Made by a program: the position numbers and the translations under genes. The notes beneath the pieces were generated by a model, which worked only from the letters and a program-made list of their open reading frames with translations, did no database searches and was not told the DNA's origin. 62,023 bases of DNA, taken from the NCBI GenBank assembly GCA_028291365.1, contig JAQGIE010000089.1:1-62023 (forward strand), given 5' to 3'. This document shows positions 8,345 to 24,129 of this stretch, piece after piece. The stretch comes from Rhodospirillales bacterium. Its GTDB lineage: Bacteria; Pseudomonadota; Alphaproteobacteria; BOG-932; Roseiterribacteraceae. Every line of letters starts with the position of its first letter. The first letter of the stretch is position 1.

Positions 8345-8359
8345 CAGAATCTCTCGTCA

Positions 8360-8595: not shown

Positions 8596-8602
8596 GGCGA
8601 CC

Positions 8603-8986: not shown

Positions 8987-9459
8987 CCATGCTGCTGATG
9001 CGCTACGACATCCCGCTCGAGGACGCCGCCCAGGTTGCCGCGGTGCGAGCCCGCGCCGCCGAGCGCGGACCGCGCTTCGACGGCATGGCCGGTCTCGACT
9101 GGAAGCTGTTTCTCGTCGATCCCGTCGAGCCTTGCTACGCGACGCTCTACGCCTGGAACGATCCCGCGGCGGCGACGCGCTTTCTCGACGGTCCGTTCTT
9201 CGAGGCGCTGGTCGCGTCTTTCGGCCGGCCCGAGGTGCGGCTGTTGCTGCCGCGCCTGGTGACGCCGCCGCCACGGGATCTTCGGCACATGACGCGCACC
9301 GACGATGGGGCCGATCTCGCCCCTGATCTTTCGGCGCTCGACCCGCAGGACGGCGCCATCTTCAACGCGCGCTGGGGAGATCTGGGGCGCATCGCGGAGG
9401 GGCGCAGGTTCGAGGTGATGTACCTCGCGCACGGAAGTGCTAGCACGCACGGAAACTAG
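8983..9459 (+). CDS. DUF4865 family protein
   Basis: 158-aa protein matching the DUF4865 pattern as I know it: 'MRYDIPL' start, 'ERGPRFDGMAGLDWKLFLV', 'YATLYAWNDPAAATRFLDG' and 'VASFGRPEVRLLLPRL'. The N-terminal half looks like a dimeric alpha/beta-barrel (antibiotic-monooxygenase-like) fold. It is often found next to LysR and tautomerase genes, as here. The GTG overlapping the tautomerase stop is taken as the start; an ATG two codons later is equally possible. The biochemical role is not established. Confidence 0.78.
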   Translation: MTMLLMRYDIPLEDAAQVAAVRARAAERGPRFDGMAGLDWKLFLVDPVEPCYATLYAWNDPAAATRFLDGPFFEALVASFGRPEVRLLLPRLVTPPPRDLRHMTRTDDGADLAPDLSALDPQDGAIFNARWGDLGRIAEGRRFEVMYLAHGSASTHGN

Positions 9460-9476
9460 ATATCGGAGTGACGAGG

Positions 9477-10355
9477 ATGACTGAGCCGAAACGCGTCGCG
9501 TTCCTGGGACTGGGCGTCATGGGCTATCCGATGGCGCGCCATCTGGCGAAGGCCGGCCATGACGTCACGGTCTACAACCGCACCCAGGAAAAGGCGCAGC
9601 GCTGGGTCAGCGAGTTTGGCGGCCGCGCCGCGCCGACCCCGGCGGCAGCCGCGGAAGATCGCGACATCGTTTTCGCCTGCGTCGGCAACGATCACGATCT
9701 GCGCGAGGTCGTGCTGGGCGAGCAGGGCGCCTTCGCGGGCATGCGCTTCGGCAGCATCTTCTGCGATCACACCACCGCCTCGTCCGAGATCGCGCGTGAG
9801 CTCGCCAAGGCCGGTACCGAACGCGGCATCGGCGTGCTCGACGCGCCGGTGTCGGGCGGTCAGGCCGGCGCCGAGAACGGCCAGCTCACCATTATGATCG
9901 GCGGTGCCGAGGGCACCTTCCTCAAGGTCGAGCCGGTGATCCAGGCCTATGCCAAAGCCGCCGTGCTGATGGGCGAGGCGGGGGCGGGACAGTTGACCAA
10001 GATGGTCAACCAGATCTGCATCGCCGGCGTCGTGCAGGGCCTCGCCGAAGCCATCAATTTCGGCCAGCGCGCCGGGCTCGACATGGAGAAGGCGATCGCC
10101 GCCATCTCCAAAGGTGCCGCGCAGTCGTGGCAGATGGAAAATCGCTACAAGACGATGATCGAAGGCAAGTTCGATTTCGGTTTCGCGGTCGACTGGATGC
10201 GCAAGGATCTCGGCATCGTGCTCGACACCGCGGACCAGGTCGGCGCGCGCGTGCCGATGACGGCGCTGGTCGACCAGTTCTACGCCCAGGTGCAGGCGCG
10301 CGGCGGCAAGCGCTGGGACACGTCGAGTCTGATCCAGCTGCTGCAGAAGGATTGA
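9477..10355 (+). CDS. NAD(P)-dependent 3-hydroxyisobutyrate dehydrogenase-like oxidoreductase
   Basis: 292-aa beta-hydroxyacid dehydrogenase. Rossmann motif 'VAFLGLGVMGYPMARHLAKA' at the N terminus; substrate signature 'LDAPVSGGQAGAENGQLTIM'; catalytic Lys in 'GAGQLTKMVNQICIAG'; C-terminal 'FDFGFAVDWMRKDLGIVLD'. It may act on 3-hydroxyisobutyrate, tartronate semialdehyde or succinic semialdehyde (GLYR-type). The ATG at 9477 is preferred over a GTG three codons upstream because GGAG lies 8 nt ahead. A 17-nt gap separates it from the DUF4865 gene, so it may share the transcript. Confidence 0.9.
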   Translation: MTEPKRVAFLGLGVMGYPMARHLAKAGHDVTVYNRTQEKAQRWVSEFGGRAAPTPAAAAEDRDIVFACVGNDHDLREVVLGEQGAFAGMRFGSIFCDHTTASSEIARELAKAGTERGIGVLDAPVSGGQAGAENGQLTIMIGGAEGTFLKVEPVIQAYAKAAVLMGEAGAGQLTKMVNQICIAGVVQGLAEAINFGQRAGLDMEKAIAAISKGAAQSWQMENRYKTMIEGKFDFGFAVDWMRKDLGIVLDTADQVGARVPMTALVDQFYAQVQARGGKRWDTSSLIQLLQKD

Positions 10356-10360
10356 ACGCG

Positions 10361-10549
10361 ATGCTCGAGCTGGCCGATTGCGCGAACGAGGTTTGCCCGT
10401 TCTCGGGCAAGCCGGTGGTGGCCGACTCGTTGACCCGGTTTGAAGGTCGCGTCGTGGGTTTCTGCAATCCGGGTTGTCGCGACAAGTTCGCGCGCGAGCC
10501 GAGCGCCTATCCAGCGGCGGTCGAGTTGTTTCGCGCCATCCCCAGGTGA
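10361..10549 (+). CDS. Small four-cysteine YHS/TRASH-like protein
   Basis: 62-aa protein with C7, C12, C35 and C39. The segments 'CPFSGKPV' and 'GFCNPGCRDKFA' resemble YHS/TRASH-type treble-clef metal-binding modules. It is a stand-alone module without a catalytic domain. It starts 5 nt after the dehydrogenase stop and its own stop overlaps the next GTG start, so it lies inside the operon. A role in metal (Zn or Cu) sensing or binding is inferred from the Cys pattern only. Confidence 0.75.
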   Translation: MLELADCANEVCPFSGKPVVADSLTRFEGRVVGFCNPGCRDKFAREPSAYPAAVELFRAIPR

Positions 10550-11571
10550 CGGGCGGCTACGCCGCGCGGTTCCAGAGTTTCGCCAGCTTTGGAACGCTCG
10601 GCACGTCGCCGCTCTACGAGGCGCTCGGACCGGGCATCGCCGCCGATCAGCGGCTGCTCGACATCGCCGCCGTGGCGCAGAAGGGCCAGCCGCTCCCCAA
10701 CCTCATGTTTGGCGCCGTGCAGTATCTGCTGCGCCGCGCGAGCGACGATCCGTTGGCGCGCTTCTATCGCAGCCTGACGCCGCGGCCGGCGCCGCCGGAC
10801 CAGGCCTTTCCCGATTTCCGCCGCTTCGTGCTCGCCCACGAAGAAGAGCTGCGCGGGCAGATTGCGACGCGCACGGTCAACACCAACGAAACCGGACGCT
10901 GCTCGCTGATCCGGCCCGGGCTTGCGCTGGCATCGACTCTGTTCGGCGACGATGCGGCGCCGCTGCATCTGATCGAAGTCGGCGCCAGTGCCGGCCTGGT
11001 CCTCAACTGGCCGCTCTATCGCATCGCCTATGCCGGCGGGCCGACGGTCGGGCCCGCAGACTCGCCGCTCGAGCTCGCCTGCGAGCTGCGCGGCGGGACG
11101 CTGCCGCCGCTTGCTGTCGCACGGCCGCTCGGCGCGCACGTCGGACTCGAACAGTCGCCGGTCGATCTCTTCGATGCCGATCAGACCGATTGGTTGCGCG
11201 CTTTGATCTGGCCCGAGCGCGTCGACCGCCAGCTTCGATTCGATCACGCACTTGCCATCGCGCGCAGCCACCGCCCCGACATCCGCCAGGGCGATGCGGC
11301 GCGCGATCTGGCCGCGCTCGCCGACGAACTGCCCGCCGGGCCGCTCGTCGTGCTGCATGCCTTCGTGCGCTACCAGTTCGACGCTGCGACCGAGGCCGCG
11401 TTTGAGGCGGCGCTCGCCACGATTGCAGCGGCGCGGCGCGTCGCGGTGCTGGGGCTGGAATGGGAAGAGGGTGATGCGACGCCGTTCCTTACGTTGGCGC
11501 GCCCGGGTGATCCGCGCCGCACGCTGGCGAGCTGCGACAGCCACGGCACGTGGCTGCATTGGAGCGGCTAA
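10546..11571 (+). CDS. DUF2332 family protein
   Basis: 341-aa protein with the DUF2332 pattern: 'SPLYEALGPGIAADQRLLDI' near the N terminus, 'PNLMFGAVQYLL', then a Rossmann-like 'LHLIEVGASAGLVLNWPLYR' resembling an AdoMet-binding loop, and 'VVLHAFVRYQF'. Methyltransferase activity is an inference from that glycine-rich stretch. The GTG start overlaps the previous stop (GTGA). It converges with the EAL gene, with only 1 nt between the two stops. Confidence 0.82.
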   Translation: MTGGYAARFQSFASFGTLGTSPLYEALGPGIAADQRLLDIAAVAQKGQPLPNLMFGAVQYLLRRASDDPLARFYRSLTPRPAPPDQAFPDFRRFVLAHEEELRGQIATRTVNTNETGRCSLIRPGLALASTLFGDDAAPLHLIEVGASAGLVLNWPLYRIAYAGGPTVGPADSPLELACELRGGTLPPLAVARPLGAHVGLEQSPVDLFDADQTDWLRALIWPERVDRQLRFDHALAIARSHRPDIRQGDAARDLAALADELPAGPLVVLHAFVRYQFDAATEAAFEAALATIAAARRVAVLGLEWEEGDATPFLTLARPGDPRRTLASCDSHGTWLHWSG

Positions 11572-11572
11572 A

Positions 11573-12727
11573 CTAGGCTGCTGAGCGTCGCAGCAATACG
11601 GTTGCGCTGGCAGCCGGCATCGGGCGCGCGAACCAATAGCCCTGGCCGAGGCGGCACCCGCTCGCCTGCAGCGTGCAGGCGACCTCGTCGCTTTCGATTC
11701 CTTCGGCGATGACCTGCACGTTGAGCGCGCTCGCGAGCGCCAGGATCGCGCGCACGATGGCGGTCGCGTCTTCCGAGTCCATCAGATGCAGCACGAAGGA
11801 CTTGTCGATCTTGAGTTCGGTGCAGGGCAGGGACTCGATCAGCTGCAAGGTCGAGCTGCCGGTGCCGAAATGGTCGAGCGCGACGCGATAGTTGGCTTGC
11901 CGCAGATGGGTCATCGTTTCGCGCAGCCGCGTCGGATTGCGCGCCGTCGACGCCTCGGTCAATTCGAGGCAGATCTGATCGGCCGTGAGCCCGTGCTCGA
12001 TGCGTTGGGCCTCCAGCACGTCAGCGAACTCGGTGGCCTCGAACGTTTCGGGTGAGACATTGATCGAAATGGTCGGGCGCACGCCGTAGCACGACCAGAT
12101 CGCCGCCTGCGCGAACGCCTGGTCCAGAACCCAGGCCGACAGGCGTTGGCCCAGCCCGCCGGTCTCGGCCAGTGGCACGAACGAATCCGGATAGACCAGC
12201 CCGAGATCCGGATGCTGCCAGCGGCACAGCGCTTCCATGCCGGTGATCTGTTTGCTGGTGAGGTCGACGATCGGCTGCCAATGCAACACCAGCTCGCCGC
12301 GATCGATCGCCTGCGACAAGGCGTCGATCCGGCTGAGCCCGCTGGTCGGCATCTTGTGTGCCAGCGCACGCGCGAAACTCGCCACCGTCATCGGCTTCTG
12401 GAGCACGTCCCCCATCGACAGGCCGAACGACGTGCCGATCCTGCGCATCGTCTCCAGGACCATCGGTTCGAAGGCGCTCATCAAAACGATGGTTGCGGAG
12501 CAGCGCCGGCATGCCAGTTCGCGAAGCAGCTGCAGCCCGTCGAGATTGGGCATCTGCAGATCGATCAGCACGAAATCGGGTGCCCATTCGTGCGCGATGC
12601 GCAGAAACACAGGCGGGTCGGTGGTGGTCCGACTTTCGGCGCCGGTCTGCACGGCGAGACGCTCGACGAAGCGAAGCATCATCGGCTCGTCATCCATGGC
12701 GAGTAGCCGCATCGTGCGAATCCCCAT
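11573..12727 (-). CDS. Response regulator with EAL domain, probably impaired c-di-GMP phosphodiesterase
   Basis: 384-aa protein: receiver domain at residues 7-125 with phospho-acceptor D56 and K111, then an EAL domain at about 135-380. Conserved EAL features are present: E165-A-L, N223, E255, K306, E342 and Q362. The 'DDFGTG' motif reads D285-H286-F-G-T-G, so the second acidic residue of the metal-site motif is His. That could lower or abolish c-di-GMP hydrolysis and leave a sensing or scaffolding role. Architecture resembles RocR. No partner kinase is adjacent. A start at the internal Met6 ('MRLLAMDDEP') is possible. Confidence 0.9.
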   Translation of the reverse strand: MGIRTMRLLAMDDEPMMLRFVERLAVQTGAESRTTTDPPVFLRIAHEWAPDFVLIDLQMPNLDGLQLLRELACRRCSATIVLMSAFEPMVLETMRRIGTSFGLSMGDVLQKPMTVASFARALAHKMPTSGLSRIDALSQAIDRGELVLHWQPIVDLTSKQITGMEALCRWQHPDLGLVYPDSFVPLAETGGLGQRLSAWVLDQAFAQAAIWSCYGVRPTISINVSPETFEATEFADVLEAQRIEHGLTADQICLELTEASTARNPTRLRETMTHLRQANYRVALDHFGTGSSTLQLIESLPCTELKIDKSFVLHLMDSEDATAIVRAILALASALNVQVIAEGIESDEVACTLQASGCRLGQGYWFARPMPAASATVLLRRSAA

Positions 12728-12974
12728 CGGGGAATAAAAGAACAGTTTATCGTAAGGTTCCCCGCAGCGCCTTCCTTTTTAGATTGTCACAGCGCCGTAA
12801 CATATTGTTCACGCTCCGTTATTCCGGACACGTTCGTCGCTGCGATGCCGCTGTAGGCGTAAATCAGCGCCGGATCAACGCTTGTGATGATCCACGGATC
12901 GAGGCGACGGACTCGTCGGCACGCGCGCAGCGGCCGTTCGCCGGCCGGCCCGCTACAGGATGGCCGCCGCAGCC

Positions 12975-13802
12975 TCAGGCTTCGGTTTTGGCGCGCTGCC
13001 AGAGCATTTCCATCTCGTCCAGCGTGGCGCCGTCAGGCCTGCGGCCCTCGGCGGCGAGGCGGTCTTCGATGAAGCGGAAGCGGCGCTCGAACTTGCCATT
13101 GGTACCGCGCAGCGCGGCTTCAGGATCGATCTTGAGATGGCGTGCGAGGTTCACGACGACGAACAGCACGTCGCCAAGTTCGTCCTCGATGCGCCGCGTG
13201 TCGCCGGCGGCGAGTTCTGCGCGTAGTTCACGCAGTTCTTCTTCGAGCTTGTCGAGGATCGGCGGCGCGTCGCTCCAGTCGAAACCGACGCGCGCGGCAC
13301 GTTTCTGCAGTTTGAGGGCGCGAGTGAGCGCGGGCAGGCCGGCGGCGACCCCGTCGAGCGTACTGGCGCGTCGGCCGGCCGCGGCAGCCTTGGCGGCGCG
13401 CTCGCTTTCCTTGCGCTGTTCCCACCATTGATTGACGGCGCGCTCATCCTCGAGCGTGCCGCCGGCGAAGACATGCGGATGACGCGCTTCCATCTTGTCC
13501 GCGATGGCGGTGACGACGTCGGTGAAGGTGAAGTCGCCGCGTTCTTCGGCCATGCGCGCGTGGAACACGACCTGGAACAGCAGGTCGCCGAGCTCGTCCT
13601 TGAGATCGTGCATGTCGCCGCGCTCGATCGCGTCGGCGACCTCGTAGGCCTCTTCGATCGTGTAGGGCGCGATGGTCGCGAAATCCTGGCGCAGATCCCA
13701 CGGACAGCCGCCATCGGGATCGCGCAGCTTCGCCATCATCTGCAACAGCCGCTGCAACGCGGCGCTGGAATTGCCGGCAGGTGAGTCATCGAACGGGGGC
13801 AC
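12975..13802 (-). CDS. mazG: Nucleoside triphosphate pyrophosphohydrolase MazG
   Basis: 275-aa all-alpha NTP pyrophosphatase with two MazG repeats. The first has 'GGCPWDLRQDFATIAPYTIE' and the metal-binding 'EEAYEVADAI...DELGDLLFQVVFHA'; the second has 'LEEELRELRAEL...DELGDVLFVVVNLARHL'. It removes non-canonical or excess NTPs and can affect (p)ppGpp-linked survival. I chose the GTG at 13802 because AAGGA sits 6 nt ahead and homologous proteins begin near this point. The frame stays open for 33 more codons upstream (to 13901), but that extension has no family similarity that I can see. Confidence 0.93.
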   Translation of the reverse strand: MPPFDDSPAGNSSAALQRLLQMMAKLRDPDGGCPWDLRQDFATIAPYTIEEAYEVADAIERGDMHDLKDELGDLLFQVVFHARMAEERGDFTFTDVVTAIADKMEARHPHVFAGGTLEDERAVNQWWEQRKESERAAKAAAAGRRASTLDGVAAGLPALTRALKLQKRAARVGFDWSDAPPILDKLEEELRELRAELAAGDTRRIEDELGDVLFVVVNLARHLKIDPEAALRGTNGKFERRFRFIEDRLAAEGRRPDGATLDEMEMLWQRAKTEA

Positions 13803-14041
13803 GGCAGGTCCTTCTTCGCGGACTCGAAAAACGAGCGTCGCTCCCCGCATTAGGCGCGTGATCAGGTCCTGACAATCGGCGAGCAGGTCAGCGAGCCGCA
13901 ATCTCGTGTCGGTTTTCTTTTCAGGTTCGGCGCCGGCATCCGCATCCGCCGGGCGGAATCCGTAAAATTATGAGCAACCGCGCCAACGGCCCCCGTCTTG
14001 CGAACGAGAGCGAAGGAAGAACAAACCCAGGGAGAGAGAGC

Positions 14042-14713
14042 ATGTTCCGTAGATGTTGTTCGACCTGCCGCCTGGCGCTGTTTGCCGGCGTGACAGGGCT
14101 CAGCCTCGCTGCCGCGGCACCGGCCAGTGCGGCTGTCAGTTGGACCTCAACGCCCGGCGGCGGCAATCCCAACGGGCTCAGCTCGGGGCAGGCCGGCGCC
14201 ACCACGATCGACTTCAATAGCGGTGCGGCACCGGGCTTCTTCGGCGGCGCGGTCGTCGGTCCGGGAACCACGCCCGGCCTGTTCGCAACGCCGCTCGACG
14301 ACTTGACGAAATACTATTCGGCCGGCCCGTCGACCGGTTCGCCGGCGTCGCTGACCCTCGGCGGTCCGAACAATTATTTCGGGCTCTATTGGGGTTCGAT
14401 CGACAGCTACAATACGATTCAATTCTTCTTCGGCGCCACGCTCATCGCGTCGTTCACCGGGACCGACATCAACAATCCGGCGAACGGCGATCAAACGAGC
14501 AGCGCGACCAACCGTTTCGTCGAGTTCACGTTCACTGGCGGTAGCACCTTCACCGGCGTTCTGTTCTTTTCGTCCCAGAACGCCTTCGAGTTCGACAACG
14601 TCGCTGTTGCCAACGTCGAGGGCGGTGGCCCCAACGTGCCGGAACCGGCTTCAGCAGCGCTGCTCGGCGCGGCTTTGTTCGGGCTCGGCTGGGCACGCCG
14701 CAAAAAGCACTGA
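14042..14713 (+). CDS. PEP-CTERM sorting-domain protein
   Basis: 223-aa secreted protein. N-terminal signal peptide (about residues 1-31, ending 'APASAAV'); a Gly/Ser/Thr/Asn/Phe-rich beta-type body; C-terminal tripartite tail: 'VPEPASAALL', a hydrophobic helix, and a basic end 'WARRKKH'. PEP-CTERM proteins are processed by exosortase (EpsH/XrtA) and reach the cell surface or biofilm matrix. The ATG at 14042 follows a GGGAGAGAGAG ribosome binding site. It is monocistronic, between mazG (divergent) and a strong hairpin. No exosortase gene is in this window. Confidence 0.9.
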   Translation: MFRRCCSTCRLALFAGVTGLSLAAAAPASAAVSWTSTPGGGNPNGLSSGQAGATTIDFNSGAAPGFFGGAVVGPGTTPGLFATPLDDLTKYYSAGPSTGSPASLTLGGPNNYFGLYWGSIDSYNTIQFFFGATLIASFTGTDINNPANGDQTSSATNRFVEFTFTGGSTFTGVLFFSSQNAFEFDNVAVANVEGGGPNVPEPASAALLGAALFGLGWARRKKH

Positions 14714-14737
14714 CGCACACGAGATCGCCTGAGCACA

Positions 14738-14771
14738 ATGCGGCCCGCCGGATCGGTTCGGCGGGCCGCAT
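14738..14771 (+). terminator. Strong hairpin after the PEP-CTERM gene
   Basis: Perfect 13-bp inverted repeat: ATGCGGCCCGCCG and CGGCGGGCCGCAT around an 8-nt loop, 24 nt after the stop. There is no clear T-run, so termination may depend on stem strength. It lies between convergent genes and could serve both directions. Confidence 0.75.
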
Positions 14772-14845
14772 CAGTTCTAGGCCCGCGGCCATCGGCTTGT
14801 GTCCTGTGTCCGTTTTCGGCGATGGTTAGCGGACGTCCCACGAGA

Positions 14846-16153
14846 TCACTCCGACTGCGCCAGGCCGCCATCCACGCGACGGAACGCCAAGGCCTGCCGG
14901 ACTTCGGCGTCGGTGTCTTGCGAACGCGTTTCGCCCAACAAGCCCAGCAGCAGCATCGCGATCACGCCGACGGCTGCGGCGCCATAAAACGCGACCGCAT
15001 AGCCAAAATGATCAACCGTCATGCCGCCGACGATACCAGCGAGCGCGGCGCCCGCGCCGTGAATGGTGGCAACGGCGCCCTGCGCGACGTTGAAACGGCC
15101 GGTACCGCGCGTCAGGTCGGCGATGACCAACGGCGCAATCGCGCCCAGAACACCGGCGCCGATACCGTCGAGCAGTTGTACGAGCAGCAGCCAGCCGGTG
15201 TCGTCGGATACGGTGAACAACAGCGCGCGTAGCGGCAACGACGCAAAGCCGAGGAGCAGGATCGGCCTGCGGCCCCAACGTTCGGCGTTGCGCCCGACCA
15301 GCAGCGCGACGCCCAGCATCATGAGCTGGGCGGCGACGATGCAGCCCGACAGCATCGCGGTCGCGTACGCGGCATGGGCGTCGGCAAGCTTCTGGCCGAC
15401 GAAAGGCAGCAGCGGGGCATTGGCGAAATGGAACAGAAAACCGCACGCGGCGAAGACGAGCAGCGGGCGGCAGGTGATGAGAACACCAAGCGCAGCCTGC
15501 GGTGCTGCCGCGTCGCCATTGCCGCCGCCTCGCGCGCGTTGGTGATCGACCGCGCCGGCGGGAATTGAAAGCGTCGCAGCAGCCGCCAGCACGGCGAAGG
15601 CAGGAACCAGCAGGAACACGGCACGCTGCGACAGCAACCAGCCGATCAGGCCCGCCAGAACCGCCACCGCTATGTTGCCGGCATGGTCGAAGGCTGCGTT
15701 GCGCCCGAGGCGCCGCGCGAGCCGCGCACGGCGATAGAGGCCGAGCGTCAACGCCGCGACCGCCGGTCCGAATACGTCGCCCACCATCGATATGGCCGCG
15801 TTCGCGGCCAGCACCGGCCAGAACGACGTCGACAGAAAGATAACCAGCGCTCCCGCTGCCAGTACGCCGAGCGCCCCGACGATCAACGCGCGTTTGGCCC
15901 GCGTTGCATCGATGAGAACACCGATTGGCGTCTGCACGGCGAGGCCGAGCAGGCCGCCAATGGTCGTTACCACACCGACCCCCGACTGAGTCCAATGCTG
16001 GTCGGTGACGAGGAAGACGTTGAGATAGGGGCCCAGCGCGCCGCGCACGTCGGCCAGCAGGAAGTTCACCGCATCGAGCGAGCGTCTGGGGTCGTCGCTT
16101 CGCCTCACGGCGCAGCTTTCAGCTGCCGACGGCGCCGCATGTCGGAATTTCAA
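14846..16153 (-). CDS. MFS transporter
   Basis: 435-aa protein of about 12 membrane segments. 'NFLLADVRGALGPYLNVFLV' begins the conserved part, followed by 'GVGVVTTIGGLLGLAVQTPI' and the motif-A-like 'GVLIDATRAKRALIVG'. The substrate is unknown; this MFS branch is not assigned. The start overlaps the stop of the preceding paralogue gene by 4 nt, so it is probably the last gene of the sigma-54-driven operon from 17.5 kb. A later start near residue 28 would also fit, since the first about 25 residues are hydrophilic and not conserved. Confidence 0.87.
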   Translation of the reverse strand: MKFRHAAPSAAESCAVRRSDDPRRSLDAVNFLLADVRGALGPYLNVFLVTDQHWTQSGVGVVTTIGGLLGLAVQTPIGVLIDATRAKRALIVGALGVLAAGALVIFLSTSFWPVLAANAAISMVGDVFGPAVAALTLGLYRRARLARRLGRNAAFDHAGNIAVAVLAGLIGWLLSQRAVFLLVPAFAVLAAAATLSIPAGAVDHQRARGGGNGDAAAPQAALGVLITCRPLLVFAACGFLFHFANAPLLPFVGQKLADAHAAYATAMLSGCIVAAQLMMLGVALLVGRNAERWGRRPILLLGFASLPLRALLFTVSDDTGWLLLVQLLDGIGAGVLGAIAPLVIADLTRGTGRFNVAQGAVATIHGAGAALAGIVGGMTVDHFGYAVAFYGAAAVGVIAMLLLGLLGETRSQDTDAEVRQALAFRRVDGGLAQSE

Positions 16154-16791
16154 TGCGCGGGATGGTGCTTCGGCCCGCGCTTGTGTGGCGGATGTTCGTC
16201 CTCGGGATCGTGCGGCTTCGGCTTCTTCTCGATCGGACGCAGGTCGCGTTGGTTGGTGCCAATCTCGTGCGCGTGCACGACGGTTCCGTGCACCGTCGTT
16301 CGGGCCTCGCCGCGCAGGGCCAGCCGCGCGCCCGGCTTCAATCGTTCATCCAGCGCGGCTGCCGCGTGCGGTGGGAAGCGGCCGCTGCGGCCGTCTTCGA
16401 ACAGCACCCCGCGTACTTCGCCTTTGGGACCATGCAGCGGGCGCAGCACGACACCCTCCACTGTGGTCGCGGGCGAATGCGACCCGCTCGGCTTCTTCGC
16501 AGGCTTCTTGTCGTGAGCGGGCGGACCGTTGTCGATGATTTCAATTCCGTCTTCGGCGACGACGCTGACCGCAGCGATGAACTTGACGACGCCGCGCGGC
16601 CGCACGCCGCGGACGAGAACGCGGCTGCCCGGCTGGACCGCCGCGCACAGCGCCGCGCCCATATGCGGCGGGAAATGCACTTCGGTGCCGTCGTCCAGCA
16701 TCAGCCCGTCGGCGTCGCCTTTGGGGTTGAGAAGAAAGCGTTCGACCGTACCGTGCGTTTCGGGCAGGCCTGCAGAATCGATCCAATGCAT
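16150..16791 (-). CDS. Two-repeat 'DGTEV-PP' protein, cytoplasmic paralogue, with His-rich tail
   Basis: 213-aa protein without a signal peptide. It carries two copies of a domain of about 68 residues (12-80 and 110-179). Core motifs are 'GDADGLMLDDGTEVHFPPHM' and 'GEVRGVLFEDGRSGRFPPHA', each followed by 'PGxRxxxRG'. The pattern suggests a small beta-barrel (OB-like) fold, but I recognise no named family. The linker at 90-108 is rich in Lys/Pro/Ser. The C-terminal tail 188-213 is Pro/Lys-rich with six His (194, 200, 203, 209, 210, 213) and might bind metal. It is paralogous to the secreted protein 42 nt upstream and overlaps the MFS gene downstream. Confidence 0.8.
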   Translation of the reverse strand: MHWIDSAGLPETHGTVERFLLNPKGDADGLMLDDGTEVHFPPHMGAALCAAVQPGSRVLVRGVRPRGVVKFIAAVSVVAEDGIEIIDNGPPAHDKKPAKKPSGSHSPATTVEGVVLRPLHGPKGEVRGVLFEDGRSGRFPPHAAAALDERLKPGARLALRGEARTTVHGTVVHAHEIGTNQRDLRPIEKKPKPHDPEDEHPPHKRGPKHHPAH

Positions 16792-16833
16792 CGCCGAAAA
16801 TCCTTTGTCGATGTGTGGGAGTTGGTGTGGGTG

Positions 16834-17487
16834 TTAGTGCAGTGTCGGCGGTCCGCCCGGCGGGCCGCGGCGATCCCCGGGCTTCGGCGCGACGCGAGCG
16901 AGCTGGGTCGCGTTGCTGCCGATTGCGCGCGCCGCGATCACCTTGCCGAGCGGGCTGGCGACGCCGTCACCTTCGACGTAAAGCGTCTGGCCGGGCGCCA
17001 GTGACATCGCAAGACGGTCGGCTTCGGACGGCGGCAAGCGCACCATCGTTCCGTCATCGAGCAGCACGCCGTTCAGATCGCCCTCGGGCCCGTGCAGCTG
17101 TGCTTTGACACGACCTTGCACGTTCATCGGTCGCGCCGGTGCGGGGCCGGTGTCGCTGATCGTATTGCCGGTCGCGTCGGCGGTCACTTCCATCGCCTGC
17201 ACCAGCGGAAGCGAGCGCGCTTTCAGGCCGCGCACGGTGACGGCGTCACCGGGACGAACCGCGAAAACAAGCTGCGTGCCGAGATGGGGCGGCAGATGCA
17301 CTTCGGTGCCGTCTTCGAGGATCAGTCCATCGACGTCCCCGCGGTCATTCAGGCTGTATTGCGCGACCTTGCCTTGGACGGCGGGCAATTGCTGTGGGTC
17401 ATAGGTCGCCGCGCCTTGCGCCAACGCGACGGCGCCGGATGTACCGGCGAGCAACGGCGCGGCGAGCAAGACGAATTTCGTACGCAT
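16834..17487 (-). CDS. Secreted two-repeat 'DGTEV-PP' protein
   Basis: 217-aa protein with a signal peptide (residues 1 to about 24, ending 'AVALAQ'), so periplasmic or secreted. Two domain copies: residues 36-103 ('GDVDGLILEDGTEVHLPPHL' and 'RPGDAVTVRG') and 121-190 ('GDLNGVLLDDGTMVRLPPSE' and 'APGQTLYVEG'). The C terminus is Gly/Pro-rich. No enzyme motif is visible. A GGAGG ribosome binding site lies 5 nt before the ATG. It is the first gene after a predicted sigma-54 promoter and follows the sigma-54 response regulator on the same strand, so it is probably the main target of that two-component system. Confidence 0.82.
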   Translation of the reverse strand: MRTKFVLLAAPLLAGTSGAVALAQGAATYDPQQLPAVQGKVAQYSLNDRGDVDGLILEDGTEVHLPPHLGTQLVFAVRPGDAVTVRGLKARSLPLVQAMEVTADATGNTISDTGPAPARPMNVQGRVKAQLHGPEGDLNGVLLDDGTMVRLPPSEADRLAMSLAPGQTLYVEGDGVASPLGKVIAARAIGSNATQLARVAPKPGDRRGPPGGPPTLH

Positions 17488-17503
17488 GTCATCCTCCGTG
17501 AAA

Positions 17504-17517
17504 CGAGCCTTTGCTCG
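17504..17517 (-). promoter_or_regulatory. Small inverted repeat near the predicted transcript start
   Basis: CGAGC and GCTCG with a 4-nt spacer lie at the start or in the leader of the predicted sigma-54 transcript. It could form a short 5' stem; a regulatory role is only a possibility. Confidence 0.3.
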
Positions 17518-17526
17518 CTCTGGAAG

Positions 17527-17542
17527 AGCAACCGCGATGCCA
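17527..17542 (-). promoter_or_regulatory. Sigma-54 (-24/-12) promoter of the secreted-repeat-protein operon
   Basis: On the minus strand the sequence reads TGGCATC-GCGG-TTGCT. The invariant GG and GC are separated by exactly 10 nt, against the consensus TGGCACG-N4-TTGCA. The predicted start is near 17516, about 29 nt before the ATG of the secreted protein. It lies between the sigma-54 response-regulator gene and its likely target, so activation by that regulator is the obvious inference. Confidence 0.75.
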
Positions 17543-17579
17543 GTCGTGAAATGGCGGTTTTGCTGACGATCGCTCCGCC

Positions 17580-18956
17580 TTACACGTCGTCCCCGTCCGG
17601 ATCGGAGACGCGCGGTGTCCGACTTCCGGACTCGTCCAGCCCGTAGCGCGCGATTTTCTCGTACAAAAGCTGGCGTCGGATCCCGAGTTGTTTGGCAGCT
17701 TGCGCGCGATTGCCGCCGGCAGCCGTGAGCGCCGCGCGGATCATCCTCGCCTCGAGCCGTGCGACGGCGTCCGGCAGCGTTTCGGTGGGCTGCACTGCAT
17801 CGGGCGTAGCAGACTCGCCCTGCAGGAATTCTAGATCTTCGCCGGTGACGAGGGGGCGTCGCACGAACGCCGCGACACGTTCCATCGTGTTGCGTAGCTC
17901 GCGCACATTGCCCGGCCAGGCATGCGCGAGTAAGCGCGCCGCTGCGTCGGCCGAGAGCTGTTTGGCGCGCGCGTCGCCAGCCGCGAGCGCGAGAAAATGT
18001 TCGGCCAGCGGCACGATGTCGGCGAGCCGTTCGCGCAAGGGCGGCAAGGGCAGGGGAATAACGCCGAGCCGGTAGTAGAGGTCTTCCCGAAACACGCCGT
18101 CGCGCACGGCGCGCTGCAGGTCGCGGTGCGTCGCGGCGACGACGCGCACATCGACCGCAATGGCGCGACCGCCCACCGGGACGACGACGCGCTCTTGTAG
18201 CGCGCGCAGCAGCTTGGCCTGCATGGCCAGCCCCATGTCGCCGACTTCATCGAGAAACAACGTGCCGCCATCGGCTTCGCGAAACGAACCGGCGCGATCG
18301 CCGACGGCGCCCGTGAACGCGCCGCGTACATGGCCGAACAACAGGCTCTCGAGCAATTCGGACGGGATCGCGGCGCAGTTCACCGCCACGAACGGGCCTG
18401 CGGCGCGACGGCCGTAGCGGTGGATGGCGCGCGCGACGAGTTCCTTTCCGGTGCCGGTCTCGCCCGTGATCAGCACCGTCGCGTCGCCATCCGCGAGCAG
18501 GCCGATCGCCTTCTGCACCTCGCGCATCGCGGCGCTCGATCCGACAAGCTCGTGGTCGCGCGTCGACGCCGCCGGTTCTCGCGTCGCCAGGACGGTCGGC
18601 TGCAACATCCGTGCGAGCAGGGCGATGAGGTCGTCGCGCCCGACCGGTTTGGCGAGGTGATCGACGGCACCGAGCCGCATCGCTTCGATCGTATTGTCGC
18701 TCGTCGGAACCGCCGTGATCACCGCCACCGGCGGCGGCGACGGTTGCGCCACGATACGACGCAGAACCTCCAGCCCGTCGAGGCCCGGCATGCGCAGGTC
18801 GAGCAGGACCGCATCGGCACGCTCGCGCGCGATCCAATCCAGCGCCTGCATGCCGTCAGCCGCTTCGGCGGCGACATGGCCGAGGTCGCCGAGCGCAGTC
18901 GCGAGCGCGCTGCGCAAGGCCGTGTCGTCGTCGACGATCAGCACTGTGGCCATCAC
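17580..18956 (-). CDS. Sigma-54-dependent response regulator (AtoC/ZraR-like)
   Basis: 458-aa activator. Receiver domain at residues 3-115 with D53 and K103; AAA+ domain from about 137 with Walker A 'GETGTGKE', an intact 'GAFTGA' at 212-217, Walker B 'GGTLFLDEVGD' and arginine-finger region 'REDLYYRLGVIPLPLPPLRER'; Fis-type DNA-binding region at about 395-440 ('GNRAQAAKQLGIRRQLLYEK'). The complete GAFTGA loop means it should drive sigma-54 promoters, unlike NtrX in this window. It overlaps the upstream kinase gene by 4 nt. It may start at Met1 or Met2. Confidence 0.93.
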   Translation of the reverse strand: MMATVLIVDDDTALRSALATALGDLGHVAAEAADGMQALDWIARERADAVLLDLRMPGLDGLEVLRRIVAQPSPPPVAVITAVPTSDNTIEAMRLGAVDHLAKPVGRDDLIALLARMLQPTVLATREPAASTRDHELVGSSAAMREVQKAIGLLADGDATVLITGETGTGKELVARAIHRYGRRAAGPFVAVNCAAIPSELLESLLFGHVRGAFTGAVGDRAGSFREADGGTLFLDEVGDMGLAMQAKLLRALQERVVVPVGGRAIAVDVRVVAATHRDLQRAVRDGVFREDLYYRLGVIPLPLPPLRERLADIVPLAEHFLALAAGDARAKQLSADAAARLLAHAWPGNVRELRNTMERVAAFVRRPLVTGEDLEFLQGESATPDAVQPTETLPDAVARLEARMIRAALTAAGGNRAQAAKQLGIRRQLLYEKIARYGLDESGSRTPRVSDPDGDDV

Positions 18957-20425
18957 GAGTCCTGCGGCAATTCCAAGGAAAAGATGGTGGCCTCGGCATC
19001 CGCCTCGGCGCGATTTTCGCGCAACACGAGACGACCCCCATGGGCATCGGCGAGTTCGCGCGCGATCGCGAGACCGAGGCCGGTGCCGTCGGCGCGGCCG
19101 GTGACGAACGGTTCGAACAAGCGCTCGCGCATGGTGGGCGAAACGCCGGCGCCGCTATCGGCGACTTCGATCGCGAGCGAACCGTCGCGGTGCTGCGCCG
19201 TCAGCCGGACGAGTCCGCCATCGGGCGCGTGGCGCACCGCGTTGGTCAGGAGATTGTCGAGGATGCGTTCGACGAGCGCGACATCAAGCGTGGCTGTCGT
19301 GACGCCGCTTTCGCAGGCGAGCGTGATGCGGCGCGCGTCTGCGGCAGCGCGATGCGCGTCAAGCCTGCGTTGCAGGAACGGCACCAGGTCGATTTTCGTC
19401 GGGTTGGGTGTCCGACGTTGCGTCATGGCCAGGAGTTCGGTGACGAGCGTGTCGAGGCGGCCGACCTGCGCGAGCATATCAACGATGGCGGTGCGTCGCC
19501 GAGCTTCGTCGCCGGCGAGCGCGTTTTCGCCTTGCAGCCGCAACACCGCGAGCGGGTTTCGAATCTCGTGCGCGACGCCGGCGGCGACACGGCCAAGCGC
19601 GGCGAGGCGCTCGGCGTTGGCGGCGCGGGCGGCGAAACGCTCGGAGTCACGACGTGCGTCGCCGAGACGCCGTCGCGCGTCGTTGAGCGCATCGACGATG
19701 CGGTCGAGTTCGCGTTCGCCGGTGGCCCGAATTTCGGGCAATCCGCTGGCGTCGGCTTGCCGCAGCGTGCGTTCGATGCTGCGCAGCTGACGGGCCCAGA
19801 CGACGAGCATGCGCGTCAGCAGCGCGGTTATGCCCATCATCAACGCGAACAGCACGCCCAGCCCGAGTTGCAAGGGCCCATAGCCAAGGGCCGATTGTAC
19901 GCGAGTCATCGTCCAGGCGCTGAGGCCGGCGATGGGCCCCGGCAATGGACACGCATGCAGCAGCAAGGTCTGCGCGCGCGTCGCGGCGCGCGCTCCCGCC
20001 GGTTGTTCGTCGCGCAACGCCTGCTGGTTGATGGCGGCGACCCGGTCGCGCTCGGCGACCGGAAAATCGGTCTTCGGTCCGGTGCCCTGATACGTCGGGA
20101 AGGCATAGGCGAGGGACCCCGCCTCGGTCTGCCAGATGCCGCCCTCGATCCCGTCCTGGCGACCCAGGGCCACTGCGACAACGGCGCCCAGCTCTTGTCG
20201 TAGCGTCGGGTCCGCGAAGGACGGAACCGGGCCGTGCCAGGCGCGGGCGTAGAAGTCGAAGCGGTTGCGGATCAGGTCGCAGGCGCGTGCCACCACGGCT
20301 TCGGCGCGACCGACCTGTGCCTCGGTCGATTGCTGATAAAGCTGCACGAACAAGATGCCGACCGCGACGCATGCAACCAGCGACAAGCCCCATAGGGCGA
20401 AGAGACGGGCGCGAAACGAGTGCAT
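18953..20425 (-). CDS. Membrane sensor histidine kinase, partner of the sigma-54 regulator
   Basis: 490-aa kinase. Membrane segments at about 8-30 and 187-209 flank a periplasmic sensor region of about 155 residues that matches no domain I know. A HAMP-like linker leads to HisKA with H286 ('GVAHEIRNPLAVLR'), and the HATPase has 'DNLLTNAVRHA', 'DSGAGV' and 'GTGLGLAIARELADAHGG'. The NtrB-like 'HEIRNPL' box fits pairing with an NtrC-type regulator, which is encoded next with a 4-nt overlap. The signal is unknown; the periplasmic sensor and the secreted target protein suggest envelope or extracellular sensing. Confidence 0.92.
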   Translation of the reverse strand: MHSFRARLFALWGLSLVACVAVGILFVQLYQQSTEAQVGRAEAVVARACDLIRNRFDFYARAWHGPVPSFADPTLRQELGAVVAVALGRQDGIEGGIWQTEAGSLAYAFPTYQGTGPKTDFPVAERDRVAAINQQALRDEQPAGARAATRAQTLLLHACPLPGPIAGLSAWTMTRVQSALGYGPLQLGLGVLFALMMGITALLTRMLVVWARQLRSIERTLRQADASGLPEIRATGERELDRIVDALNDARRRLGDARRDSERFAARAANAERLAALGRVAAGVAHEIRNPLAVLRLQGENALAGDEARRRTAIVDMLAQVGRLDTLVTELLAMTQRRTPNPTKIDLVPFLQRRLDAHRAAADARRITLACESGVTTATLDVALVERILDNLLTNAVRHAPDGGLVRLTAQHRDGSLAIEVADSGAGVSPTMRERLFEPFVTGRADGTGLGLAIARELADAHGGRLVLRENRAEADAEATIFSLELPQDS

Positions 20426-20479
20426 CTCGGCATGGGACCAGGGCGACGGGCAATCAACGCCATGGCGGCTTGCTTCGTC

Positions 20480-21685
20480 TCAGGCGTGGAAAGCCCGTGT
20501 GCGTCGACGCTCGTCGAGCCAGGCGAGGACCCAGACGGCCAAGCCGCCGAGCGCCAGCGCGGATCCGACAAGCCCGGTCGAGCCCCAGCCGAATCCCGCG
20601 CGGATCGCCATGCCGCCGAGCCACGGGCCGATCGCATTGGCGGTGTTGAACGCGCTGTGATTCAGCGCTGCCGCCAACGTCTGCGCGTCGCCGGCGACGT
20701 CCATCAAGCGCGTCTGCAGGATCGAGGCGAGCCCGCCGCCGCAACCGATCAGCAACGTGACGATCGAGATCGACCAGAGATGCGGTGCGGCGAACGGGTA
20801 GAGGGCAAGGGCGCTTGCGCTCCAGATCAGCAGCACGGCTGCTGCCGGCATCAGGGCGCGATCGGCGGCCCAGGCACCCGCGAGATTGCCGAGTGTCAGG
20901 CCGATGCCGAAGACGCCGAGCACGAACGGTACTGTCCCGGCCGAGACTCCGGTGACCGCCATCAGCGTCGACGCGAGATAGGCATAGACCGCGAACATGC
21001 CGCCGAAGCCGATCGCACCAATGCCCAGCGTCAACCAGACCTGACGGCGCTTCAGCGCCGTCAGCTCGCGCAACGGGCTGGCTGCTTCATCGGGCGTGTC
21101 TTTGGGCACGAAGGCGAAGACGAGCGTCGCGGTGAGCAAGGCGAGCACTGCGACGATGCCGAAGGTCCAGCGCCATCCCAAGGCGAGACTGACCGCCTTG
21201 GCCGTAGGCACGCCGATGACGGTTGCAATCGTCAGGCCCGCGAGCACGCGCGCCACGGCCTGGGCGCGCCGTTCCGGCCCGACGAGATTGACGGCCACGA
21301 GCGCAGCGACGCCGAAATAGGCGCCGTGCGGAACGCCGCTGAGAAAGCGGAATGCGAGCATCCAGCCATAGGACGGCGCCGACGCGCTCAGCGCGTTGCC
21401 GATGGCGAACAGCGCCATCAGTCCGATCAGCAGCGTGCGCCGTGCGAACCGCGCGCCCAGCACCGCGATCACCGGCGCACCCAGCACGACGCCCAGCGCG
21501 TAGGCGCTGATCACATGGCCGGCGGTCGGCTCGTCGATGCCGAGGCCCGCGGCGAAGTCGGGCAGCACACCCATGGCGGCGAACTCGGTCGTGCCGATCG
21601 CGAAGCCGCCCATGGCGAGCGCAAAGAGGATGAGTCCGTTCGACCGGACGGAGACGCCGGTCGAAACAAGCTGTGTCGATGACAT
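20480..21685 (-). CDS. MFS exporter, AraJ/YdhP-like
   Basis: 401-aa transporter of about 12 membrane segments. Typical of the AraJ/YdhP (DHA1) branch: 'MGGFAIGTTEFAAMGVLPDF', 'ISAYALGVVLGAPVIAVLGA' and 'GVPHGAYFGVAALVA'. These proteins export sugars, purines or drugs; the substrate here is unknown. I prefer the ATG at 21685 because upstream in-frame codons give a hydrophilic unconserved lead, though the ribosome binding site is weak. A nested palindrome about 190 nt upstream is a candidate operator. It lies 54 nt upstream of the histidine kinase on the same strand. Confidence 0.86.
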   Translation of the reverse strand: MSSTQLVSTGVSVRSNGLILFALAMGGFAIGTTEFAAMGVLPDFAAGLGIDEPTAGHVISAYALGVVLGAPVIAVLGARFARRTLLIGLMALFAIGNALSASAPSYGWMLAFRFLSGVPHGAYFGVAALVAVNLVGPERRAQAVARVLAGLTIATVIGVPTAKAVSLALGWRWTFGIVAVLALLTATLVFAFVPKDTPDEAASPLRELTALKRRQVWLTLGIGAIGFGGMFAVYAYLASTLMAVTGVSAGTVPFVLGVFGIGLTLGNLAGAWAADRALMPAAAVLLIWSASALALYPFAAPHLWSISIVTLLIGCGGGLASILQTRLMDVAGDAQTLAAALNHSAFNTANAIGPWLGGMAIRAGFGWGSTGLVGSALALGGLAVWVLAWLDERRRTRAFHA

Positions 21686-21876
21686 TTTTTGGAAACGCGT
21701 CGAGAGGATGTTCGCCAGGCAACCTAGCTCTGCGACCGGCATCGTCAGCGCGGCAATTGGTTGCTGCGCCAGCCGCGGATTGCGTCGGGGCGACGCCGCC
21801 GGATCGGTCCGCCGATCAGCGCGCATGCGTGGGGATCGTGTTGCCGAAAGGCTCGGTTTTAAAGGAAACCCCCACC

Positions 21877-21915
21877 TGTCTTAGTCGCATAATATGTATT
21901 ATGGAAAATAAGACA
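21877..21915. promoter_or_regulatory. Nested palindrome, candidate operator
   Basis: Outer arms TGTCTTA (21877-21883) and TAAGACA (21909-21915) enclose inner arms CATAATA (21888-21894) and TATTATG (21897-21903), all perfect. Such two-layer dyads are typical of dimeric winged-helix repressor sites (MarR/HxlR/TetR type). It lies upstream of the leftward MFS exporter and immediately before a rightward short frame. Confidence 0.6.
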
Positions 21916-22040
21916 TGGATCCGGGCGGATCTGTTGTGACGGCCCCGAATGGAGGCCCGGTGATCGACGATCTATCCGAAGCGGAATTTGCCGATCTGCT
22001 GCACCAGCACCTGTCGCCATCACGCCCTAATGCCCCTTAG
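21915..22040 (+). pseudogene. 41-aa reading frame, possible truncated gene remnant
   Basis: Frame starting 'MDPGGSVV' and ending 'DLLHQHLSPSRPNAP'. The stretch 'LSEAEFADLLHQHLSPSRP' reads like genuine protein, and I associate it loosely with the N terminus of some AAA-type ATPases. The frame stops immediately after it, so it may be a decayed 5' remnant. GGAAA lies about 8 nt before the ATG. The assignment is weak. Confidence 0.3.
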
Positions 22041-22044
22041 GGCG
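22023..22044 (+). terminator. Short hairpin before the ParD-like promoter
   Basis: Perfect 8-bp arms CGCCCTAA and TTAGGGCG with a 6-nt loop, overlapping the end of the short reading frame. There is no T-run. It may insulate the following promoter from upstream transcription. Confidence 0.4.
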
Positions 22045-22056
22045 ACGGTCGCTCGA

Positions 22057-22085
22057 TTGACCGGAGAATATGCGAACCATATACG
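22057..22085 (+). promoter_or_regulatory. Sigma-70-type promoter of the parD-like/map operon
   Basis: TTGACC (22057-22062) and TATACG (22080-22085) are separated by 17 nt, close to the -35/-10 consensus. The predicted start is near 22092, about 26 nt before the ATG of the ParD-like gene. Confidence 0.6.
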
Positions 22086-22097
22086 GTTCGTATATTC
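22066..22097. promoter_or_regulatory. Palindromic operator over the parD-like promoter
   Basis: 13-bp arms GAATATGCGAACC and GGTTCGTATATTC with one mismatch and a 6-nt spacer. It covers most of the -35/-10 spacer, the whole -10 and the predicted start site. This is the expected position for autorepression by a ribbon-helix-helix antitoxin-like protein, encoded next. Confidence 0.65.
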
Positions 22098-22117
22098 GTT
22101 AGCTTTCAGAGACGTCC

Positions 22118-22324
22118 ATGGGCATCGTGAAAATCGACGACGACCTGCATGAGGAAGCCCGTCGGGCCAGCACAGTGATGTGCCGGTCCATCAATGCGCA
22201 GGCCGAGTTCTGGATGAAGATCGGCATGCTGGCTGAAGCCAATCCGACCCTGTCGTTCAACGACATCGTGAAGATGCAGTTCGCGGCGGCGCATGTGCGT
22301 CTCGCGGATGTAGCGGTCGCCTGA
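22118..22324 (+). CDS. ParD-like antitoxin family protein (DUF3423-type)
   Basis: 68-aa protein: 'MGIVKIDDDLHEEARRASTV', 'CRSINAQAEFWMKIGMLAEA' and 'LSFNDIV' match the ParD-like family (PF11903/DUF3423) as I know it, with a ribbon-helix-helix N-terminal pattern. It probably binds DNA as a dimer. The downstream gene, 1 nt away, is not a ParE toxin but a methionine aminopeptidase, so a classical toxin-antitoxin reading does not hold. An AGAG ribosome binding site lies 6 nt before the ATG. Confidence 0.82.
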   Translation: MGIVKIDDDLHEEARRASTVMCRSINAQAEFWMKIGMLAEANPTLSFNDIVKMQFAAAHVRLADVAVA

Positions 22325-22325
22325 C

Positions 22326-23105
22326 ATGGTAAAGACCCCGGACGAACTGGCGCTCATGCACGTCTCGGGCAAAATGCTGGCGTCCGTCTTCGAGATGCTG
22401 GACGGGCAAGAACTCGCCGGCATGTCGACATTGCAGGTCAACGATCTGGTCGACCACTTCATCACCGTGGACCTCGCCGCCCGTCCGGCGAGCAAGGGGC
22501 AATATGGCTTCAAATATGTCCTGAACTGCTCGATCAATCATGTCGTCTGCCACGGCGTGCCCGATCCGGGCGAGATCATCCGTGACGGCGACATCATCAA
22601 CCTCGACATCACGCTCGAAAAGAACGGCTTCATCGCGGATTCGAGCAAGACCTACCTGGTCGGCAATGCCCCGCCCGCCGCGAGGCGGCTCGTGCGGGTC
22701 GCCCAGGAGGCGATGTGGAAAGGCATAAAACAGGTGCGGCCCGGAGCACATCTGGGGGACATCGGCTTCGCGATCGAACAGCATGCCAAAAGGAACGGCT
22801 ATTCGGTTGTGCGGGAATATTGCGGGCATGGCATCGGCCGCGAGATGCACGAGGAACCGCAGGTGCTGAATTTCGGACGGACGGGAACCGGCTTGAAGCT
22901 GTGCGAGGGCATGGTCTTCACCATCGAGCCAATGGTCAACCAGGGCACCCGCAAGGTCTCGACCGAGAGCGACGGATGGACGGTCGTGACCAACGACCGG
23001 AAGCTCTCCGCCCAATTCGAGCATACGGTCGCGGTCACGAGGAATGGCGTCGATGTCTTGACCCTGCGCCGCGACGAGACGCCGATGCTGGAGCGCAGCG
23101 TGTGA
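22326..23105 (+). CDS. map: Type I methionine aminopeptidase, accessory copy
   Basis: 259-aa metalloprotease removing N-terminal Met. All expected active-site residues are present: H76, metal ligands D94, D105, H168, E201 and E232, and H175. No N-terminal zinc-finger or SH3-binding extension. The N-terminal sequence ('MVKTPDELALMHVSGKMLAS') differs from what I expect of housekeeping alphaproteobacterial Map, so a second genomic copy is likely but not shown here. It is cotranscribed with the ParD-like gene (1-nt gap) under the palindromic promoter. Confidence 0.92.
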   Translation: MVKTPDELALMHVSGKMLASVFEMLDGQELAGMSTLQVNDLVDHFITVDLAARPASKGQYGFKYVLNCSINHVVCHGVPDPGEIIRDGDIINLDITLEKNGFIADSSKTYLVGNAPPAARRLVRVAQEAMWKGIKQVRPGAHLGDIGFAIEQHAKRNGYSVVREYCGHGIGREMHEEPQVLNFGRTGTGLKLCEGMVFTIEPMVNQGTRKVSTESDGWTVVTNDRKLSAQFEHTVAVTRNGVDVLTLRRDETPMLERSV

Positions 23106-23885: not shown

Positions 23886-24129
23886 CGCGCGTGCCACTCG
23901 GGCTGCTGGTTCCCCGCTGCTGGCACGGCGCGAACGTGCCGTAGGTTCGGGGCTCATCACGGTGTCAGGGGCGAAGGAATCGCCTTAGAATGATCGTCGA
24001 GGCAATGCGCCCCGCCGCCTCGTGCGGTGCGCGCCATCGGCACGCCCGTGCTCGTGCGCCATCGCAGCGCGACACGACGCACGGGAGACGTGCTCTCTTT
24101 CCCGTTCCCGCGCTTCAGGAGAATCGACA

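What the first reader, a model, noticed from the sequence alone, without database searches (positions are those of the whole stretch)
16150..17487. Four copies of a novel about 68-residue domain in two adjacent proteins
Each protein holds two repeats with the pattern G-[DE]-[ALV]-x-G-[LV]-[MLIF]-[LF]-[DE]-D-G-x3-[HRG]-[LFR]-P-P, a gap, then P-G-x5-[RE]-G. The alternating hydrophobic spacing suggests a small beta-barrel. One protein is exported, the other is cytoplasmic with a six-His C-terminal tail, so an ancestral two-repeat gene seems to have duplicated and split by compartment.
Basis: seen in the sequence. Interest (0 to 1): 0.65.

Follow-up and report, generated by a model that had tools for sequence, protein, structure and literature searches.

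The report
Regulated OB-fold pair across membrane
Two sister proteins, one sent outside the inner membrane and one kept inside, are each built from two copies of a familiar small barrel (OB fold); they are the apparent output genes of a dedicated, undescribed sensor-switch system found patchily in soil bacteria that probably handles a harmful or stress-related substance.

Summary
In detail: two adjacent minus-strand genes (A 16834-17487, B 16150-16791) each encode two diverged copies of one ~70-residue domain, far beyond chance. The fold is not new: models of both proteins show the OB order b1-b2-b3-helix-b4-b5 twice and match OB folds. The family has no curated Pfam/NCBIfam entry; annotated relatives are 'hypothetical protein'. 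A has a signal sequence and B (typically starting MHW[IL]D) does not, across Alpha- and Betaproteobacteria. B's His-rich tail is neither a six-His run nor general. The larger finding is the module: sensor kinase - sigma-54 response regulator - A - B - MFS transporter (often plus ArsB-like pump, phosphoesterase). Related loci share a -24/-12 promoter before the first OB gene (37/40) and a palindrome TGTCSGN5CSGACA at fixed phased distances upstream (39/41, against 7% by chance). The kinases share two periplasmic cysteines. A congener lacks the 7.2-kb block at an otherwise syntenic site. Best reading: a ZraSR- or SipA-like envelope/toxicant response whose OB pair binds a ligand on both sides of the membrane; ligand unknown.

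The parts
16834..17487 (-). Protein A: exported, signal peptide plus two OB domains (about residues 35-104 and 120-192), low-complexity P/G-rich C-terminus
16150..16791 (-). Protein B: cytoplasmic paralogue starting MHWID, two OB domains (about residues 9-80 and 108-183), His-rich C-terminal tail
17580..18956 (-). NtrC-type response regulator: receiver, sigma-54 interaction AAA+, Fis-type HTH
18953..20425 (-). Membrane sensor histidine kinase; periplasmic sensor between two predicted membrane spans (about residues 8-28 and 183-211) with two conserved Cys
14846..16153 (-). MFS transporter, overlaps the end of B by 4 bases; same subfamily sits in the same place in related operons
17527..17542 (-). 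sigma-54 -24/-12 promoter TGGCATCGCGGTTGCT, 40 bases before the start of A
   Evidence: only match in the window; comparable site in 37 of 40 related loci
17616..17632 (-). Predicted response-regulator enhancer (palindrome AGTCCGGAAGTCGGACA, one mismatch to TGTCSGN5CSGACA), beginning 90 bases upstream of the -24 element
20480..21826 (-). Second MFS transporter (AraJ/Cmx-like), same strand, in the same block absent from the congener; not seen as a conserved member of the operon elsewhere

Best explanation
The genes form a self-contained stress-response module. Shown or strongly predicted: a membrane sensor kinase and a sigma-54-dependent response regulator sit directly upstream of the OB pair; the regulator's likely enhancer (TGTCSGN5CSGACA) and a sigma-54 promoter lie in front of A, so A, B and the MFS transporter are its output. 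A is delivered to the periplasm, B stays in the cytoplasm, and both are tandem OB-fold proteins descended from one two-domain ancestor. Inferred: the kinase senses an envelope or toxicant signal with its periplasmic domain, perhaps through its conserved cysteine pair; A and B bind the same or a related ligand (peptide, metal or metalloid complex, small toxic anion or damaged polymer) on the two sides of the membrane, and the MFS and ArsB-like transporters remove it. A would work like V. cholerae SipA or like ZraP, as a periplasmic binder or chaperone whose gene is induced by its own sensor; the cytoplasmic twin is the unusual part.
For: Kinase-regulator-OB linkage in 40 loci of Alpha- and Betaproteobacteria. 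-24/-12 site in 37 of 40 such loci, median chance rank 2.5%. Palindrome within 2 mismatches in 39 of 41 kinase-regulator loci, 13 perfect, mostly at 68-70, 90-91 or 100-101 bases from the -24 element, against 2 of 19 loci without kinase-regulator and 7% (0.3% perfect) of random stretches. In the own genome the palindrome-plus-promoter combination occurs once, in front of A, and rpoN is present. OB fold of both proteins. Export of A and not of B conserved. Two periplasmic Cys in 38 of 39 kinases. B fused in one ORF to the operon's metallophosphoesterase in L115. Analogues: SipA, an OB-fold periplasmic protein under a two-component system, binds antimicrobial peptides (PMC6370654, PMC5636140); ZraR drives zraP from a sigma-54 promoter (PMC4987338).
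Against: I found no ligand, phenotype or expression datum for any member. Transporter types vary between loci (MFS, ArsB-like, anion transporter, NhaA), and some members stand alone without kinase or promoter (L016, L018, L020, L052-L054). The models are of middling confidence (pLDDT about 72, four sequences). Most loci are Burkholderiaceae, so the counts are not independent events.
Confidence: 0.55

Rival explanations
1. Metal or oxyanion handling: A and B are two-OB binding proteins like the cytoplasmic di-Mop molbindin ModG, buffering a metalloid or oxyanion that the ArsB-like/anion transporter exports; the kinase senses it through thiols.
For: ArsB/CitMHS-type transporter in many operons, paired Cys in the sensor, His-rich tail in the window's B, ModG (1h9j) appears among structural matches (rank 26, prob 0.25).
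Against: No TOBE/Mop sequence match; no conserved metal-ligand set in the OB domains (HxxxH of domain 1 is MFPPY in Acidiphilium); ArsB-like gene absent from the window operon; the ModG match is weak and ranks among many OB folds.
Confidence: 0.2
2. Signalling accessories: A modulates the kinase from the periplasm (feedback, as ZraP does for ZraSR), B modulates the regulator or kinase from the cytoplasm; the transporters do the actual work.
For: Tight linkage of both proteins to kinase and regulator; kinase, regulator and A are kept in L009, L010, L021, L047 and L048 without a detected B or MFS.
Against: Stand-alone A and B genes exist without kinase or regulator (L016, L018, L020, L052-L054).
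Confidence: 0.15
3. Nucleic-acid binding: the OB domains bind single-stranded DNA or RNA, B inside the cell and A in the periplasm, for example in DNA uptake or extracellular nucleic-acid stress.
For: Nearest solved folds are SSB, PriB and tRNA-synthetase anticodon-binding OB domains; weak PF01336 hits in 5-6 members.
Against: Fold resemblance is shared by OB domains in general and says nothing of function; periplasmic location of A; no SSB family match; transporter and kinase neighbours rather than DNA-processing genes.
Confidence: 0.1

Closest known systems
V. cholerae SipA / E. coli YgiW / Salmonella VisP, YdeI (BOF family of periplasmic OB-fold proteins)
   Same: Periplasmic OB-fold protein whose gene is an output of a two-component system; stress-related (antimicrobial peptides, Cd, H2O2) (PMC6370654, PMC5636140)
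   Different: SipA is a 15-kDa protein; no BOF sequence match here; here two domains, a cytoplasmic twin, and sigma-54 control within the same operon
ZraSR-ZraP (E. coli, Salmonella)
   Same: Membrane kinase plus sigma-54 response regulator driving an adjacent periplasmic stress protein (PMC4987338)
   Different: ZraP is a zinc-binding periplasmic chaperone, of Spy/CpxP type (own knowledge), not an OB fold; zraP is divergent from zraSR; kinase and regulator score far below the ZraS/ZraR equivalog cut-offs (134 of 479 and 354 of 760 bits)
DUF5666 (PF18914) and OB tRNA_anti-codon (PF01336)
   Same: Weak sequence hits in 5 of 37 members each, best E 1.4e-4
   Different: Window A does not hit either at E 0.01 and neither A nor B does; neither family is defined as a two-compartment pair
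GlrR enhancer TGTC(N)10GACA
   Same: Same half-sites TGTC/GACA (PMC4987338)
   Different: Spacing here is N9 with conserved SG/CS; the regulator is not a GlrR equivalog (347 of 763 bits)

Membership tests
OB fold | Five-stranded barrel b1-b2-b3-helix-b4-b5 | tested here: met
   DSSP of models of A and B shows this order in each repeat; best VIA-align rows for the N domain of A and the C domain of B are OB folds, Z up to 8.9 and 8.1. Models are of moderate confidence.
BOF/YgiW (PF04076) | Match to the Pfam profile | tested here: not met
   No PF04076 hit in any of 37 members at E 0.01
BOF/YgiW (PF04076) | Single small OB domain exported to the periplasm | tested here: not met
   A is exported but has two OB domains; B is not exported
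DUF5666 (PF18914) | Match over the curated cut-off | tested here: inconclusive
   5 of 37 members hit at E<=0.01, best 1.4e-4; window A does not; whether any member passes 27 bits was not listed
ZraSR-ZraP system | ZraS/ZraR equivalogs | tested here: not met
   134 of 479 and 354 of 760 bits
ZraSR-ZraP system | Periplasmic Spy/CpxP-like partner | tested here: not met
   Partner is an OB-fold protein, no Spy/CpxP profile hit
ZraSR-ZraP system | sigma-54 promoter before the periplasmic gene | tested here: met
   Sequence match only:
NtrC-family enhancer-binding response regulator | Receiver + sigma-54 AAA+ + Fis HTH | tested here: met
   PF00072, PF00158, PF02954 over cut-off; below the equivalog cut-offs
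SSB / PriB | Sequence family match | tested here: not met
   No SSB profile hit in Pfam or NCBIfam
SSB / PriB | Single-stranded DNA binding | not testable with these tools
   needs a binding assay
TOBE/Mop molbindin | Match to TOBE profile and oxyanion binding | tested here: inconclusive
   No TOBE hit; ModG structure only weakly matched; binding not testable here

The most novel reading that the evidence does not exclude
An undescribed, probably horizontally spread stress-response system in which a cysteine-bearing sensor kinase and a sigma-54 regulator switch on a matched pair of OB-fold binding proteins placed on both sides of the inner membrane, so that one ligand is captured in the periplasm and in the cytoplasm before export.
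Probability: 0.4. Interest if true: 0.65.

Novelty: new variant of a known kind. Interest (0 to 1): 0.5.

Why it matters
It turns a pair of 'hypothetical proteins' into a defined, testable regulon: kinase, regulator, enhancer, promoter and outputs are all located, and the same plan recurs in Bradyrhizobium, Acidiphilium, Methylocystis, Burkholderia, Paraburkholderia and Caballeronia, often on plasmids or secondary replicons. Periplasmic OB-fold proteins are a small, poorly understood group tied to envelope stress; a cytoplasmic sister co-induced with the periplasmic one would be a new arrangement. The inducer can be sought with a simple promoter reporter.

Tried and rejected
Sequence search of PDB with single protein and profiles: only chance hits. 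Pfam 'Cuticle_1' hits (12 of 37 members) cover a 15-residue DGTxVxxPP stretch, in window A below the cut-off, and were discarded as motif-level chance. The first composite pattern in the own genome used a wrong gap and found nothing; corrected, where the reversed control pattern also gave one match, so a chance match per genome is not excluded. An HxxxH metal site (HLPPH/HFPPH) was considered and dropped because Acidiphilium and the A protein of Burkholderia stagnalis lack it. Literature searches for the operon gave nothing relevant. Laying the whole genome in the Python box was not available.

Full report
1. Observation. A (16834-17487, minus) has 217 residues, B (16150-16791, minus) 213. Similarity between copies is 11.5 to 33 standard deviations above shuffles, highest for A1-B1 and A2-B2. 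No further copy was found in the window's genome. The tail of B has six histidines within its last 20 residues, but they do not form a run.

2. Fold. AlphaFold models from a four-sequence alignment (pLDDT 72.6 and 72.2) show, in both repeats of both proteins, three strands, a helix and two strands, the order of an OB fold. Foldseek and VIA-align return SSB, PriB, RPA, lysyl- and asparaginyl-tRNA synthetase OB domains, with Z up to 8.9 for the first domain of A and 8.1 for the second domain of B. Z near 8 alone would be modest, but the consistency of the list and weak, independent profile hits to the OB family PF01336 and to DUF5666 in several relatives agree. The domain is therefore an OB fold in a family without a curated model: no NCBIfam match in any of 37 members, and annotated relatives are 'hypothetical protein'.

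3. Relatives. tblastn finds relatives on 22 plasmid records of Methylocapsa, Bradyrhizobium, Methylocystis, Acidiphilium, Variovorax, Caballeronia, Paraburkholderia, Burkholderia and one Bacteroidota, Spirosoma. They are patchy: 2 of 59 relatives, 12 of 397 genomes of the phylum sample, 8 of 387 of the class sample, but 32 of 150 in the family of G257. That family is probably Burkholderiaceae, because two contig lengths of G503 equal those of Caballeronia sp. M1242 plasmids.

4. Compartments and origin. With start sites chosen by a simple rule, nearly all A proteins begin with a hydrophobic signal sequence, often with a lipobox-like AGCAAQ in Burkholderiaceae; the exceptions are rows where the rule picked an internal or early start (L103, L104, L117) or short or doubtful matches (the second L050 row, L124). 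B proteins typically begin MHW[IL]D and show no signal peptide. A tree of 148 domains puts N-domains of A and B together (72 rows, support 98/96) apart from most C-domains, and 32 B C-domains, including those of the window and Bradyrhizobium, in one group (99/92). So the domain doubled first, and the two-domain gene then split into an exported and a cytoplasmic line. Exceptions are the very diverged proteins of family f93 and Spirosoma, which sit on long branches.

5. Operon. In the window the order on the minus strand is second MFS (20480-21826), kinase, regulator, A, B, MFS; kinase-regulator and B-MFS overlap by 4 bases. Kinase and regulator next to A and/or B, usually with an MFS gene, recur in 40 loci of several families in two classes; Burkholderiaceae operons often add a metallophosphoesterase, an ArsB-like pump and a DMT-type protein. 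Spirosoma keeps DMT, phosphoesterase, pump and an A-like protein without the kinase. In L115 B and the phosphoesterase are one ORF of 588 aa.

6. Switch. The regulator is a typical NtrC-type enhancer-binding protein below the equivalog cut-offs. A -24/-12 promoter, TGGCATCGCGGTTGCT, at 17527-17542 is the only such site in the window, 40 bases before A. A comparable site precedes the first OB gene in 37 of 40 kinase-regulator loci. Upstream of it a dyad search exposed shared inverted repeats, summarised as TGTCSGN5CSGACA: within two mismatches in 39 of 41 kinase-regulator loci (one of the 41, L101, has only weak opposite-strand hits), 13 of them perfect, mostly beginning 68-70, 90-91 or 100-101 bases from the -24 element, spacings of about two or three helical turns; 2 of 19 other loci and 7% of random stretches have one. 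This is the expected anatomy of a regulator enhancer. In the window it is 17616-17632. The combination occurs once in the genome (one chance match also for the reversed control), and rpoN is present. Binding itself is inferred. The pattern was derived from these same loci, so the count for the kinase-regulator loci is not an independent test; the fixed spacing and the near absence from the other loci are.

7. Sensor. The kinase has two membrane spans around a periplasmic domain of about 150 residues without a Pfam match. Two cysteines about 100-115 residues apart, in C-x2-[IV] and [AG]-C-P-[LV] contexts in most, are present in 38 of 39 kinases of these loci (the exception is a truncated frame). 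They may form a structural disulfide or be the sensing element.

8. Mobility. In the congener G001 the window's 5-14700 and 25146-44316 are syntenic (76-86% identity over most of it), but 14701-21878 is missing and about 170 bases stand in its place. The block holds all operon genes plus the second MFS. Its GC content (68.0%) is close to that of the flanks. Gain here or loss in the congener cannot be told apart from this pair alone; absence from the three other genomes of the family as well favours gain.

9. Mechanism. Shown: anatomy, fold (predicted), conservation of compartments, operon, promoter and palindrome. Inferred: induction by the regulator, the nature of the signal, ligand binding by A and B, and export. 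The closest working models are SipA, an OB-fold periplasmic protein under a two-component system that binds antimicrobial peptides (PMC6370654, PMC5636140), and ZraP under ZraSR with sigma-54 (PMC4987338). The system is not a member of either by sequence. The cytoplasmic twin has no counterpart in those models, as far as I know.

10. Verdict. A solid observation with a partly correct reading: a new family on a known fold, serving as output of an undescribed but recognisable kind of sigma-54 two-component stress module.

Noticed in passing
window 21882-21909: TAGTCGCATAATATGTATTATGGAAAAT looks like the chromosome dimer resolution site dif (compare Mesorhizobium AAGTCGCATAAGATAGATTATGGAACTT and Rickettsia TTGTTCTATAATATGTATTATGGAAAAT in PMC2731167). 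It is the only copy in the genome, is conserved in the congener, and lies 55 bases upstream of the second MFS gene, so the OB block sits beside it; GC skew shows no clear turn here.
   Followed up: partly
window 21922-25145: Also absent from the congener G001 on the other side of the dif-like site (M24 peptidase 22326-23105 and downstream), so both sides of the site carry variable DNA.
   Followed up: no
L018, L087, L089, L091, L093, L101, L107, L110, L112: Stand-alone B-type genes (MHWIDP...) without kinase, regulator or A in Burkholderiaceae; in L018 next to a GntR-type regulator and an amidohydrolase.
   Followed up: partly
L115:2873-4636: Natural fusion of B with the operon's calcineurin-like metallophosphoesterase in a single 588-aa ORF.
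   Followed up: partly
L052, L053, L054: Small (2-2.5 Mb) alphaproteobacterial genomes carry a lone A-type protein without kinase or regulator; in G029 (L012) it lies just upstream of what look like AtpI and ATP-synthase a-subunit genes.
   Followed up: no
window 13970-14713: PEP-CTERM protein at the left edge of the variable block; Acidiphilium plasmid pACMV1 also has a PEP-CTERM gene a few kb from its OB operon.
   Followed up: no
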